From: Streptosporangium album
GTDB lineage: Bacteria > Actinomycetota > Actinomycetes > Streptosporangiales > Streptosporangiaceae
Direction of reading: 5' to 3'
DNA length: 64,000 nt
NCBI RefSeq assembly: GCF_014203795.1
Contig: NZ_JACHJU010000001.1
Coordinates: 2,728,001 to 2,792,000, forward strand
The translations under genes were made by a program, and so were the position numbers. Positions within the stretch are counted from its first letter, which is position 1, and the number at the start of each line of letters is the position of its first letter. This document shows positions 12,609 to 27,722 of the stretch, piece after piece. The notes beneath the pieces were generated by a model. The model searched no databases and had not been told where the DNA came from. It was given only the letters and a program-made list of their open reading frames with translations.

Positions 12609-12799
12609 CCGCATCACGCGAACATCGGTGGTGTCGCCCGGGCCAGGTTTACTCGACGGCAATGGCAGGAGCCACGCGCGCGGAGCCGATGCCGCGGTCG
12701 GGACCGCTGTTCACCGTATGGTCCAGGGCCGGGCCCCGGCGTTCCCGGGTTCTGATGCGGTATGGCGACGTTGAGCGTTTGGCCAGGTGGAAGACGAAA

Positions 12800-12861
12800 G
12801 AGCGCGACTTCTGCTGATCTTTCAGGTCTCAAATCCGAAGATCACCGCAGGAGTCGCGCTC
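12800..12861 (+). promoter_or_regulatory. Leader hairpin masking transposase RBS (ISAs1 copy 1)
   Basis: GAGCGCGACT at 12800-12809 pairs with AGTCGCGCTC at 12852-12861. CTGC (12811-12814) pairs with GCAG (12847-12850), and TGATCTT (12815-12821) pairs with AAGATCA (12838-12844), around a short loop. The ribosome-binding site CAGGAG is inside the right arm, and the GTG start at 12862 follows directly. The fold would block translation of transcripts that start outside the element. Confidence 0.65.
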
Positions 12862-14174
12862 GTGTCCCCATCTTCCCTGACCAGCTCTCCTCCCGCCGCT
12901 ACTCTTGACCAGCTCACCGACCTGGCATTGTGGGAATCCGAACTGACGGCTGATCCGGTCGTGGTGGAATCAGCGTTGATGCGCCGGTTGGCGGCCGTAC
13001 CTGAGCGGCGCTCAGCCTGCGGGCTGCGGCATCCGCTGGTGGTCATCTTGACGTTGACGGCGTGCGCAACGCTCGTGGTCGGCGGCGACAGCGTCGCGGC
13101 GATCCGGCAGTGGGCCGCCAGGACCTCGCAAGCAGTGCTGGAGCGGCTGGGCGCCTACCACGATCCGTTCACCGGCCTGTTCATCGTGCCCAGCGAGCGG
13201 ACCTTCCGTCGGGTCCTCGCCGACCTGGACGCCGACGCGCTGGACACGGCGATCAGCGGTTATGTGGCCGAGGTGGTCCGTCAAGTGGCGCCGGTGCCGC
13301 CGATTCCCGACACCCCGGGCCGGTCGAGCGCGAGCAGCGGCGCGCAGCCCAGCGACAGGACACCCATCCCGCCCCGGCCGGGCTACTGCCCGGCGCCGCC
13401 CTCGATGGCAAGGCCTGTCGCGGCGCCCGGACCGAGCAGGGCGGGCGGGTCTTCCTGATCGGGGCGATCAGCCACGAGCACGGCGTAATCCTGGGCCAAT
13501 GCCAGGTCGCCGACAAACGTGGGGAGGGACCCGCCGCCCGTGCCCTGCTGGCCCGGCTGGACGCGGCCGGGATGGTGCTGACCCTGGACGCGCTGCACAC
13601 CACCAAGGCCACCGCCCGCCTGATCACCCAGCATCTGGACGCCCACTACATCCTCATTTTGAAGGGCAATCAGCCGCTGGCCCGCGCCGCCGCCCAAGCC
13701 CTGTTGACCGGCCCGGACACCGACTGGACCGCGACCACCGCCACTGACGACGACCACGGGCACAACCGCACCGAACGCCGCACCATCCGCACCGCCGAAG
13801 CAGACGACGCCCTGTTCCCCGGTGCCCGCCAAGCCTTCCGGCTCCGCCGCGACGTCGGCGATCTGGACGGCGTCTGGACCAGCAAGGAGATCGTGTACGG
13901 CATCACCAGCCTGCCCGCCGAAGCGGCCGGGCCCGCTCATCTCAACCACTATGAACGGGCGCACTGGGGTGTGGAAAACCGTCTCCATTGGGTCCGTGAC
14001 GTGACCTTCCGGGAGGATCACTCGCAGGTCAGGTCGGGAACCGCGCCCAGAGCGCTCGCCAGCTTCAGAAACCTGGCGATCAGCACCGCCCGGCTGGCCG
14101 GCCGCGCCAACATCGCCCATGCCCGCCGTGACCTCCTCGACCACGGTGACGCCTTCGCCGTCTACACCATCTGA
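12862..14174 (+). pseudogene. ISAs1 transposase, frameshifted
   Basis: The GTG at 12862 opens a frame encoding the usual ISAs1 N-terminus (RHPLVVILTLTACATLVVGG, then DPFTGLFIVPSERTFRRVLA). Near 13318, just after IPDTPG, the family sequence jumps to another frame: GPVEREQRRAAQRQ, then LDGKACRG, and the catalytic-core pieces HYILILKGNQPLARAA and HWGVENRLHWVRDVTFREDH up to 14174. The first frame ends at 13458. A one-base loss (or two-base gain) explains it, and no slippery run is obvious there, so I call it broken rather than programmed. The rest of the DDE domain looks intact. Confidence 0.8.
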
Positions 14175-14394
14175 TCAATCCGACGAACGGGATATAGCGA
14201 ATTAACGCCGGGGCCCTGTGGTCCAGGGTGGCAACAGGGCTCCAAAGCCGAAGTGCCTCAGCTTGAGGGAAAGTTCCCAGGTCCAGCACCATCAGCCGAA
14301 CGAGGCACCCGGAGTCCCCCTACGGTGCAGACAATTCTGGCTATCCCTCATACTCAAGGTCAGCGCGCCGGGATGATCTTCGAGAAGGGGCACC

Positions 14395-14916
14395 GTGAGA
14401 CAGCCAGGTTGTGCGGAACCGATCGTCATACGACGCTTCATCAAAGATGACTCGGTGGAAGAGCTGACCATGCTTCTGCACCGCGCTTATGCGGATCATG
14501 CAGCCGCAGGGCTCGTCTTCTTCGCCTCCTACCAAACCCCTGAGGACACGCTGCGACGCCTGGGCAAAGGAGAATGCTGGGTTGCTCTGGAGCAGGGAAC
14601 GATCGTTGGCAGTGTCACGGTGACGGGGACATACGACACCCCGCCTGGATATCCAGCGCCGGTCGATGCGGGATCGTTCTGGCAACTCGCGGTGGATCCG
14701 GCCCAGCGAGGAACCGGCCTGGGACATCGCCTCCTGACCTTGGCTGAAACTCGCATCACCGCCCTGGGCGCGTCGAAGGTAGTGATCGACACCTCCTCAC
14801 AGGCCGCCGATCTCATCGCCTGGTACGGCCGTCACGGCTACGCATCGATCGGGACATGGAAGTGGGGAGTCACCAACTACGACAGCATCGTCTTGGCCAA
14901 GGACCTCTCCGCCTGA
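14395..14916 (+). CDS. GNAT-family N-acetyltransferase
   Basis: A 173-residue acetyltransferase. GTG 14395 follows GAAGGGG, a good ribosome-binding site. The acetyl-CoA binding motif A is FWQLAVDPAQRGTGLGHRLL (residues about 97-116), with the R-G-T-G-L-G pyrophosphate loop. Motif B follows as VVIDTSSQAADLIAWYGRHG, and the protein ends YDSIVLAKDLSA. GNAT enzymes transfer acetyl groups to amines such as antibiotics, polyamines or protein N-termini; the substrate is not evident. It sits between the ISAs1 element and the tRNA-Ser island and may be imported cargo, or the native gene next to the original tRNA-Ser 3' flank. Confidence 0.85.
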   Translation: MRQPGCAEPIVIRRFIKDDSVEELTMLLHRAYADHAAAGLVFFASYQTPEDTLRRLGKGECWVALEQGTIVGSVTVTGTYDTPPGYPAPVDAGSFWQLAVDPAQRGTGLGHRLLTLAETRITALGASKVVIDTSSQAADLIAWYGRHGYASIGTWKWGVTNYDSIVLAKDLSA

Positions 14917-15166
14917 ACGAGCCTTCGTGGCCGCTCCGCGTCTCAGGTCCAACAGCAAGATCCGTCAGGTCCCCGGTTCGATGGCAGTGCCCCAAGCCGC
15001 CTGACAGCGACAGCGACCCGGGGAAACGCGGCCAACATCATTCCGCGTATATTCCGCGAACAGCGGCTCAGGGCCGCTCACGGTGGCCTGTGGCTGCGCA
15101 CTCTGGAAACGGTCAACGGCGCCTGGTCCAAGGGAGAACCCTGGTCAGACGCCGTTCTACGTGCTC
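14917..15166. other. Diverged copy of tRNA-Ser downstream flank
   Basis: No gene is seen. From about 15041 this stretch is a diverged copy of 27500-27631, the sequence just downstream of the real tRNA-Ser. Both have ATTCCGC then ATAT then CCGCG, a GGAAACG..TCAACGGCG block, and a GGTCAGACGCCGTT that pairs with AACGGCG to form a terminator-like hairpin. It is the left flank of the attachment site. Confidence 0.55.
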
Positions 15167-15226
15167 AGCGGAGAGCGTGGGATTCGAACCCACGAGGAGC
15201 CGCAAAGCCCCTAGCGGTTTTCAAGA
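15167..15226 (-). repeat. attL-like copy of tRNA-Ser 3' half
   Basis: Sixty bases identical to 27632-27691: the tRNA-Ser T-arm, variable arm and anticodon-stem part ending at the anticodon. The 5' half of the tRNA is absent, so this is not a functional tRNA gene. It marks the left attachment site of the island. Confidence 0.85.
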
Positions 15227-15478
15227 AAACTACGGTTACTCCACCCATGCCGACCGTGACCTGCGGATCAGCCTCAGGCAGGGGTCTGGCCAAGGAAGAT
15301 CATCCCGCACATATCCCGCGCTCGGCTTCTATGGTCAACGGCTGGCAAGGGCGGACCGCAACTCCTTGTGCAGGCACGGCCCCGGCATGTTGAGGATTTG
15401 ATCGGGTTTGATTCTTTGCGTGTGACCGGTGCCGACCTTCGCGGCCGGTAATCTCTGCCCCAATCCGGGCATGAGAGG

Positions 15479-15539
15479 GGGCACGACTCCCCAAGATCGG
15501 GGTTCTCACACCAACCGATCTCCAGGGGGAATCGTGCCC
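15479..15539 (+). promoter_or_regulatory. Leader hairpin masking transposase start (ISAs1 copy 2)
   Basis: GGGCACGA at 15479-15486 pairs with TCGTGCCC at 15532-15539. CCCC (15489-15492) pairs with GGGG (15526-15529), and AGATCGG (15494-15500) pairs with CCGATCT (15515-15521). The ribosome-binding site AGGGGGA and the GTG start at 15534 both lie in the right arm. Layout matches the hairpin of the first ISAs1 copy although the bases differ. Confidence 0.65.
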
Positions 15540-16901
15540 GCTGCCGCCCTATCATCGCCGACCAGCCCCGCCCGAGGTGCCGGCTTGGGTCATGACGTGC
15601 CATCCGGTCGTGGTGGTGAGGGCGGGCTGAGGGCGCGATTCCGGGTTATCTGTGACAAACGGGCCGTCTACAACACGCTGCATTCCCTGGAGTCGATTTT
15701 GGCGGTGGCCGCGTTCGGTACGGCGACGGTGGGAGGGGACACAGTGACCGCGATCAGCCACTGGGCCGATGATGCCCCGCAGGAGATCTTGGCCGGGCTG
15801 GGGTGCAGGCGCGATCCGTTCACCGGTCGGCACTATCCGCCCAGCGAACGCACCCTGCGCCGGGTCCTGGCCCAGACCGACGGGGACGAGCTGGACCGGC
15901 AGACCTGCTCCTACCTGGCCGGCGGCCACGACGTCCGCGATCTGTCGGCACCGGGCCACGGGGAACGGGCCGGAGAGCGGGACGGGGGCGATGGCCGGGA
16001 AATTCCCGCCGAGCTCCGCGTCGGTCAGGGCTGTGAGCGTGAGGGGCGCCGGGCCGCTCAGCGGACGCGGGAGCGTCCTCGGCCTGCGGGGATGCTGGAG
16101 GCAGGCGCGGCTGACGGCAAGACCGTGCGCGGCGCGGGCCATGGGCAGGCGAGCGCACCACAACTGCTGTCGTTGCTGCATCACCGCCGTGGCGTGGTGC
16201 TGGGTCAGCGGCAGATCGCCGACAAAACCAACGAGGTGCCCGAGCTCGCGCCCCTGCTGGCCGACGCCTTGTGCGGCAGCGACGTGGCCGTTATCACCGC
16301 GGATGCGTTGCACACCGCCCGCGAAAGCGCCCGGCAGATCAGCGAGGACTTCGGCTGCTACTACGTGCTTGTCCTCAAGGAGAACCAGCCCAGTCTCCTG
16401 GCCGCGGCCCAGGCCCGGCTCGCCCCTGGAACGGATGCAGACCACGAGCGGGCCGGCACCGGGCACACCGAGGCCGACCGAGGCCACGGCCGCATCGAAA
16501 GCCGCACCATCCGCACCGCGCTCGCCATCGGTCTGGACTTCCCGCACGCCGCACAGCTCTTCCGGATCGTGCGACACGTCGCCGACCTGGACGGCCACGG
16601 CACCAGCAAAGAGGTGGCCTACGGGATCACCAACGCGCCCCCGGACGTGGCCGGTCCCGCGCATCTGAGCACCTACGTTCGCCAGCACTGGAGCGTGGAA
16701 AATTCCGAGCACTACGTCCGAGATCGCACCTTCCACGAGGACGACTGCCAGGCCAGAACCGGACAGCTGCCTCACGTCCTGGCCACCCTACGCAACCTGG
16801 TCATCAGTACGTTTCGTCAACGCGGTCATGTCAACATCGCGCACGCCCGCAGGCATTACACCCACGTCCCACAACGACTCCTCACGCTGTTCACCCTGTG
16901 A
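15534..16901 (+). CDS. ISAs1-family transposase
   Basis: A 455-residue DDE transposase. The start GTG 15534 is chosen because it follows AGGGGGA and matches the start position in the other ISAs1 copy; the frame is open to 15429. The N-terminal domain shows ESILAVAAFGTATVGGDTVT and DPFTGRHYPPSERTLRRVLA. The catalytic domain contains ADGKTVRGAG, VAVITADALHTARESARQ, YYVLVLKENQPSLLAAAQAR and the late Glu-bearing HWSVENSEHYVRDRTFHEDD. An Arg/Glu/Gly-rich insert separates the two (residues about 130-185). It looks fully functional. Expression is probably held down by the leader hairpin. Confidence 0.9.
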   Translation: MPAAALSSPTSPARGAGLGHDVPSGRGGEGGLRARFRVICDKRAVYNTLHSLESILAVAAFGTATVGGDTVTAISHWADDAPQEILAGLGCRRDPFTGRHYPPSERTLRRVLAQTDGDELDRQTCSYLAGGHDVRDLSAPGHGERAGERDGGDGREIPAELRVGQGCEREGRRAAQRTRERPRPAGMLEAGAADGKTVRGAGHGQASAPQLLSLLHHRRGVVLGQRQIADKTNEVPELAPLLADALCGSDVAVITADALHTARESARQISEDFGCYYVLVLKENQPSLLAAAQARLAPGTDADHERAGTGHTEADRGHGRIESRTIRTALAIGLDFPHAAQLFRIVRHVADLDGHGTSKEVAYGITNAPPDVAGPAHLSTYVRQHWSVENSEHYVRDRTFHEDDCQARTGQLPHVLATLRNLVISTFRQRGHVNIAHARRHYTHVPQRLLTLFTL

Positions 16902-17103
16902 ACGCGGTATCAATCGGACCAGCCACACTCAAATCCTCAACATGCCGGGGCCGTGCTTGTGCAGGCGCTCGGTGACGTCCATGTCCAGTCCTCTCCGGGC
17001 CCCCTGCAGTTCTCGTGCGTGCCGTTCGATGACGTCCATTTAGCTGGGCGTTGCGGATAGACGATGAATCCCCGGCACGTCGAGCAGTCGCGCCGATCCC
17101 GCA

Positions 17104-27631: not shown

Positions 27632-27691
27632 AGCGGAGAGCGTGGGATTCGAACCCACGAGGAGCCGCAAAGCCCCTAGCGGTTTTCAAGA
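27632..27691 (-). repeat. attR-like repeat within tRNA-Ser
   Basis: The 60 bases here are identical to 15167-15226. Because the tRNA is complete on this side, this is the end at which the incoming element restored the gene. Confidence 0.85.
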
Positions 27692-27722
27692 CCGCCGCCA
27701 TCGTCCACTAGGCGAGCTCTCC
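27634..27722 (-). tRNA. tRNA-Ser (anticodon UGA)
   Basis: An 89-nt type II tRNA. The acceptor stem GGAGAGC (27716-27722 on the complement) pairs with GCTCTCC (27635-27641), with discriminator G at 27634. The anticodon stem GCGGT/ACCGC encloses the loop CTTGAAA with anticodon TGA. A long variable arm (GGGGCTTTGCGGCTCC) and T-arm GTGGGTTCGAATCCCAC are present. The 3' CCA is not encoded. It is the integration target of the island to its left. Confidence 0.96.

What the first reader, a model, noticed from the sequence alone, without database searches (positions are those of the whole stretch)
12800..15539. Two diverged ISAs1 elements share a leader hairpin that hides the transposase RBS
In both ISAs1 copies a strong stem-loop ends at the GTG start, with the Shine-Dalgarno inside its right arm (12800-12861 and 15479-15539). 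The base sequences differ, yet the fold and its register to the start codon are the same, which argues for selection on structure. This resembles the protection of IS10/IS50/IS200 transposase mRNA against read-through transcripts, but I know of no description for ISAs1.
Basis: partly seen in the sequence, partly recalled or inferred. Interest (0 to 1): 0.6.

Follow-up and report, generated by a model that had tools for sequence, protein, structure and literature searches.

The report
Hairpin hides insertion-sequence transposase start
Many insertion sequences of the ISAs1 family carry, just before their transposase gene, an inverted repeat that would fold in the mRNA and cover the ribosome-binding site, probably to keep transposase scarce when a neighbouring gene is transcribed into the element; in actinobacteria the same hairpin is also found in front of some transposases of an unrelated family, IS5.

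Summary
The hairpins are real (z -7.0 and -5.9) and sit in the leaders of two intact-ended ISAs1 elements (12729-14218, 15375-16955). The register to the start codon is close but not identical: the GTG follows the stem in element 1 and lies inside its right arm in element 2.

The feature is not limited to this pair. A covariance model finds it in 61 of 100 actinobacterial ISAs1 leaders. It is almost silent elsewhere, and 12 of 14 lower-stem pairs show compensatory changes. It also sits in front of a subgroup of IS5-family transposases, so one leader module is shared by two IS families.

Gammaproteobacterial ISAs1 elements, including the type element and an E. coli H-repeat, carry a different, short hairpin on the Shine-Dalgarno (32 of 46, against 13% of shuffles). 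In most of these, its left arm directly follows a promoter-like TTGAC-17-TSNNAT with a GATC. The predicted native mRNA would start in the loop and lack that arm, as in IS10/IS50.

Read-through protection is therefore well supported, by sequence only, in gammaproteobacteria. For the window's elements RBS masking is likely, but whether native mRNA escapes it is unknown: no promoter was found, and mismatch patterns do not separate RNA hairpin from DNA dyad. I found no earlier description for ISAs1.

The parts
12729..14218 (+). ISAs1-family element 1 (1490 bp); terminal repeats 12729-12743 / 14204-14218, 14 of 15 bases; flanked by 10-bp direct repeats TGGTCCAGGG at 12719-12728 and 14219-14228
   Evidence: sequence; direct repeat D19; PF13808 and NF033564 matches
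12800..12861 (+). leader hairpin of element 1; right arm holds the Shine-Dalgarno
   Evidence: -38.3 kcal/mol, z -6.97; same hairpin in related loci
12850..12853 (+). Shine-Dalgarno GGAG inside the right arm, 8 nt before the start
   Evidence: sequence
12862..12864 (+). probable GTG start of transposase, directly after the hairpin
   Evidence: in frame with PF13808 domain; relatives L008 and L018 have in-frame stops inside the hairpin, so the start must lie at or after its right arm
12862..14174 (+). transposase gene of element 1, split by a frameshift near 13312 (frame 12862-13458, then the frame ending 14174)
15375..16955 (+). ISAs1-family element 2 (1581 bp); terminal repeats of about 27 bp; flanked by 10-bp direct repeats CTTGTGCAGG at 15365-15374 and 16956-16965
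   Evidence: I1, 31 nt, 97%; sequence; six copies in genome
15479..15539 (+). leader hairpin of element 2; right arm holds Shine-Dalgarno and GTG start
   Evidence: -36.1 kcal/mol, z -5.88; covariance-model match, 45 bits (as L012)
15524..15529 (+). Shine-Dalgarno AGGGGG inside the right arm
   Evidence: sequence
15534..16901 (+). transposase gene of element 2, GTG start inside the right arm
   Evidence: PF13808 + PF01609, NF033564

Best explanation
The hairpin is a cis-acting brake on transposase synthesis. In any transcript that contains both arms, the left arm pairs with the Shine-Dalgarno (and in many copies the GTG start) and blocks ribosome entry. Its main use is probably protection: an element that lands inside a transcribed gene is not switched on by read-through RNA. 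In gammaproteobacterial ISAs1 the sequence shows how native expression escapes: the left arm is the few bases between the -10 box and the predicted start of the native mRNA, so native mRNA begins in the loop and keeps a free Shine-Dalgarno. Steps shown: hairpin, conservation, covariation, predicted RBS masking, promoter geometry (prediction). Steps inferred: translation block, the actual native 5' end, and the purpose. For the window's actinobacterial version, whether native mRNA lacks the left arm is unknown. Its upper stem (GATC) and loop are conserved in sequence, so something may also bind it.
For: (1) Both hairpins far exceed shuffles. (2) Model R1 finds it in 61 of 100 actinobacterial ISAs1 loci, in the leader, and genome-wide almost only in front of ISAs1 or IS5 transposases or their remnants. 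In 297 kb of other sequence the only strong hit is another ISAs1 leader. (3) Covariation on 43 distinct hairpins: 84.5% of cells paired against 74.6% shuffled and 31-45% slid; 133 double changes against 54; 12 of 14 lower-stem pairs compensated. In a sequence-only alignment all 9 predicted pairs have compensatory changes. (4) 34 of 61 hairpins have an in-frame stop inside, so translation starts at or after the right arm. (5) RBS hairpin energy -35.9 median against -20.7 in Streptomyces plasmid genes. (6) Gammaproteobacterial ISAs1: short hairpin on the Shine-Dalgarno in 32 of 46, shuffles 13%, E. coli genes 6 of 48. TTGAC/T-17-TSNNAT with TGA before the -10 directly precedes the left arm in most. 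(7) Predicted cost of opening the RBS falls when the left arm is removed: 30.6 to 11.1 and 22.2 to 10.0 kcal/mol for the window elements; medians 20.8 to 8.4 (actinobacteria) and 11.3 to 4.7 (gamma); ordinary E. coli genes 7.5 to 4.2. (8) RBS-hiding leaders are established for IS200 (PMC12594629) and ISPpu9 (PMC8450116).
Against: No promoter was found for the actinobacterial elements (and inspection), so escape of native mRNA is unproven there. In the actinobacterial lower stem A-C mismatches (57) outnumber G-U (22), and sense and antisense fold equally well (p 0.55); a DNA dyad would look the same. GATC in the upper stem is conserved rather than covarying, which hairpin masking alone does not explain. 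Cyanobacterial ISAs1 lack the short Shine-Dalgarno hairpin (0 of 8), and those of other phyla vary. No expression data exist here. The energy comparison used hairpins chosen by the model, so it overstates the contrast.
Confidence: 0.72

Rival explanations
1. Constant throttle, IS200-like: native mRNA also carries both arms, and the hairpin simply lowers all transposase translation, perhaps opened by an antisense RNA or a host protein.
For: For the actinobacterial elements there are 71-104 bp between the left end and the hairpin, enough for a promoter upstream of the whole hairpin. IS200 and ISPpu9 work this way.
Against: In gammaproteobacteria the promoter geometry points to a start in the loop. 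No upstream promoter was recognised in the window.
Confidence: 0.3
2. DNA-level dyad: the inverted repeat is a binding site (transposase autorepression, or a host protein at the GATC half-sites), and RBS masking is incidental.
For: Invariant GATC on both sides of the upper stem. No excess of G-U over A-C in the actinobacterial lower stem.
Against: The dyad always ends at the start codon and covers the Shine-Dalgarno. A different, short hairpin (5-8 bp) covers the same place in gammaproteobacteria, where stems gain more from G-U than from A-C (12 against 4, small numbers). The loop and the 3' bulge are not symmetric.
Confidence: 0.15
3. The likeness between the two window hairpins is only common descent, with no present selection on the fold.
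For: The elements are related, and parts of the hairpin (GATC, loop) are conserved in sequence.
Against: Double compensatory changes exceed shuffles and slid controls; very different arm sequences with the same fold, e.g. L001/L011; different hairpins at the same place in other bacteria.
Confidence: 0.05

Closest known systems
IS10 / IS50 protection from read-through transcription (from my knowledge: Davis, Simons and Kleckner 1985; Schulz and Reznikoff 1991)
   Same: An inverted repeat puts the transposase RBS in a hairpin in read-through RNA. In gammaproteobacterial ISAs1 the left arm lies upstream of the predicted native start, and a GATC overlaps the -10 region, as described for IS10 (PMC5006887); [quoted passage not shown]
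   Different: Different IS family and unrelated sequence. Native start not mapped. The actinobacterial version is a 60-nt hairpin with no recognised promoter in its left arm.
IS200 tnpA leader stem-loop (PMC12594629)
   Same: A stable leader stem-loop sequesters the RBS.
   Different: In IS200 the stem-loop is in the native transcript; whether that holds here is unknown. The transposase class differs (HUH against DDE, from my knowledge).
ISPpu9 leader structure (PMC8450116)
   Same: A 5' structure is proposed to bury the RBS; weakening it raised reporter translation 26-fold.
   Different: Long 5'-UTR with antisense activation; different IS; no sequence relation shown.

Membership tests
ISAs1 family of insertion sequences | DDE transposase of ISAs1 type (PF13808 with PF01609; NF033564) | tested here: met
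   for both elements; element 1 in two frames
ISAs1 family of insertion sequences | terminal inverted repeats and 8-10 bp target duplication | tested here: met
   10-bp duplications for both; repeats read, element 2 also
IS10/IS50-type read-through protection | hairpin covering the transposase RBS in read-through RNA | tested here: met
   (prediction only)
IS10/IS50-type read-through protection | native transcript starts downstream of the left arm | tested here: inconclusive
   gammaproteobacterial elements: promoter geometry fits. Window elements: no promoter found
IS10/IS50-type read-through protection | measured drop of translation from read-through RNA | not testable with these tools
   needs reporter experiment
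IS200-type leader stem-loop | RBS-sequestering stem-loop inside the native mRNA | tested here: inconclusive
   hairpin present, native 5' end unknown
Rfam families | match at gathering score to any described RNA family | tested here: not met
   window region, no hit at gathering score and none on the hairpins; six loci, none

The most novel reading that the evidence does not exclude
The 60-nt actinobacterial hairpin, with its invariant GATC upper stem, conserved loop and covarying lower stem over the start codon, is a regulatory module in its own right. It has passed, together with the first codons (MPxxPS), between two unrelated IS families (ISAs1 and an IS5 subgroup), and a host or element factor that reads the upper stem-loop controls both.
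Probability: 0.25. Interest if true: 0.72.

Novelty: new variant of a known kind. Interest (0 to 1): 0.58.

Why it matters
It would extend the rule known from a few enterobacterial elements (IS10, IS50, IS200), that insertion sequences hide the transposase start from outside transcription, to a large family found in many phyla. It also gives a clear example of how the same aim is reached with different hairpins. The sharing of one leader between ISAs1 and IS5 elements suggests that regulatory leaders move between IS families, which is testable. It further shows that annotated transposase starts can be wrong, e.g. a Streptomyces plasmid ISAs1 gene annotated 105 bp past its hairpin.

Tried and rejected
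Alignment A3 (YdcC with actinobacterial transposases) was too diverse to scan with; replaced by A4. A general minimum-energy test for the non-actinobacterial set showed no difference from E. coli genes (p 0.32): long arbitrary hairpins swamp the signal. The specific short-hairpin test was then made after seeing the sequences, so its criteria are post hoc. G-U against A-C test for RNA against DNA: not in favour of RNA in the actinobacterial stem. GATC as -10 box of a promoter in the actinobacterial left arm: rejected, because its spacing to the loop varies and the last T of the box is not kept. Loop as -10 box (A kept, final T mostly C): rejected. The hairpin as an intrinsic terminator: no terminator-like site found. 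Upstream ORF extension through the hairpin: rejected, in-frame stops in 34 of 61 hairpins. Hits without an obvious transposase: L121, L135 and L246/L249/L258 are ISAs1 remnants; L265 is probably an unrelated palindrome; L257 unclear.

Full report
What is in the window. The finding covers two insertion sequences of the ISAs1 family. Element 1 runs from 12729 to 14218 and element 2 from 15375 to 16955. Each is bounded by inverted repeats and a 10-bp duplication of the target, which I read from the sequence (the arms of element 2 are also). Pfam and NCBIfam place both transposases in the ISAs1 family. The window lies in a 9.0-Mb genome that holds 19 matches to PF13808: three to element 1 and six to element 2 among them. 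Element 1's reading frame is broken near 13312 compared with the close relative in L006, and it is short in its two other copies too.

The observation. Both stem-loops fold as claimed and are far beyond shuffled sequence. The Shine-Dalgarno is in the right arm in both. The claim of an identical register is not exact. In element 1 the GTG comes directly after the stem. In element 2 it is inside the right arm and paired. The first amino acids (MSPSSLT and MPAAALSSPT) show that the start codon has shifted by a few codons relative to the hairpin.

Conservation in actinobacteria. I collected ISAs1 loci by PF13808 from the same family and class, found leader hairpins in most, and built a covariance model from 30 of them. 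It finds the hairpin in the leader of 61 of 100 loci (10 own-genome, 51 from other genomes); nearly all other hits are the reverse strand of the same sites. The 30 model sequences match by construction.

In 61 whole genomes, the matches lie in front of ISAs1 genes or remnants, with exceptions that led to the IS5 observation below. In 297 kb of other sequence the only strong hit is the leader of an ISAs1 gene on a Streptomyces plasmid. The architecture is a lower stem of about 14 pairs with the Shine-Dalgarno in its right arm, a bulge on the 3' side, an upper stem with GATC on both sides, and a loop close to GGT-TYCTAC-GCC. Of the 61 hairpins, 34 contain an in-frame stop, so translation starts at or after the right arm.

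Covariation. On 43 distinct hairpins aligned to the model, 84.5% of cells pair (shuffled 74.6%, slid 31-45%), 133 cells have changes on both sides (shuffled 54), and 12 of 14 lower-stem pairs have such changes. That alignment leans to the structure. The sequence-only alignment of the 30 seeds gives nine predicted pairs, all with compensatory changes. The GATC part of the upper stem is conserved in sequence and hardly covaries. The strand test that could have shown RNA rather than DNA failed to do so: lower-stem mismatches are more often A-C (57) than G-U (22), partly because of one mismatched column, and sense and antisense fold equally well.

Other bacteria. Eighty ISAs1 loci from many phyla, ISAs1 elements on plasmids and E. 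coli K-12 were examined. Gammaproteobacterial elements, including the ISAs1 type element, ISKpn31, ISAs12, ISAeme2 and an E. coli H-repeat (ydcC), have a quite different, short hairpin on the Shine-Dalgarno: for example CTCCCT-TTTT-AGGGAG, CTCTCT-TTTAC-GGAGAG, GTCTCC-ATGCA-GGAGGC. It is present in 32 of 46, against 13% of shuffled leaders and 6 of 48 E. coli genes; these criteria were set after seeing the sequences. Cyanobacterial elements have none (0 of 8), and other phyla are mixed (8 of 25).

How it probably works. In most of these gammaproteobacterial leaders the left arm directly follows TTGAC/T-17-TSNNAT with TGA before the -10, with a GATC across it. A transcript from that promoter would start about seven bases later, in the loop, without the left arm. 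RNA entering from outside has both arms. The predicted cost of opening the RBS falls from a median of 11.3 to 4.7 kcal/mol when the transcript starts there. For ordinary E. coli genes the same kind of cut changes 7.5 to 4.2. This is the IS10/IS50 arrangement, down to a GATC over the -10 region, as described for IS10 (PMC5006887).

For the window's elements, removing the left arm lowers the predicted cost from 30.6 to 11.1 and from 22.2 to 10.0. I could not place a promoter, so the native transcript may or may not contain the left arm. RBS masking is the likely action; read-through protection is the likely purpose by analogy.

Shared with IS5 elements. Some model hits had no ISAs1 gene. Several of them, including four in the own genome, sit at the start of transposases with the N-terminus MPxxPS that belong to, or match, an IS4/5-type transposase (PF13340 in L264). 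The model scores most of them at 40-46 bits. The IS5 leader of L288 aligns to ISAs1 leaders with a score of 50, against at most 27.5 for shuffles. The ends of these IS5 elements are different (GCCCGGCAATAGGGAT). IS5 elements without that N-terminus show no model match. So the same leader, with the first codons, is shared by two IS families, most simply by exchange.

What is known. Leaders that hide the RBS are described for IS200 (PMC12594629) and ISPpu9 (PMC8450116), and, from my own knowledge, for IS10 and IS50. Searches for ISAs1 together with hairpin, leader or ribosome binding site gave nothing on this; the library lacks most subscription journals. No Rfam family matches. I rate this a new variant of a known kind: the principle is known; its spread through ISAs1, the promoter-overlapping version and the leader shared with IS5 appear not to have been described.

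Noticed in passing
L264, L266, L268, L284, L285, L288, L289, L290, L123 (IS5-family transposases): The same leader hairpin and MPxxPS N-terminus precede a subgroup of IS5-family transposases in actinobacteria, including four in the window's own genome.
   Followed up: yes
window 13280-13340: Element 1's transposase is frameshifted relative to its close relative L006, and its frame is equally short in the two other genome copies: a dead element moved in trans, or a functional frameshift.
   Followed up: partly
L239 24240-24410 (NZ_CP108515.1): The annotated start of a Streptomyces plasmid ISAs1 transposase lies 105 bp past the hairpin; the real start is probably at the hairpin.
   Followed up: no
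L158-L183, L143, L144, L148 (leaders): Gammaproteobacterial ISAs1 leaders keep a GATC overlapping the -10 region of the promoter, and often a second GATC, suggesting Dam control as in IS10/IS50.
   Followed up: partly
L246, L249, L258: In three genomes of one family a left-end ISAs1 remnant (end plus hairpin) is left without a transposase.
   Followed up: partly
window 15168-15255: A tRNA-Ser gene (minus strand) lies about 120 bp from the left end of element 2; a second tRNA-Ser with the same anticodon is at 27633-27722.
   Followed up: no
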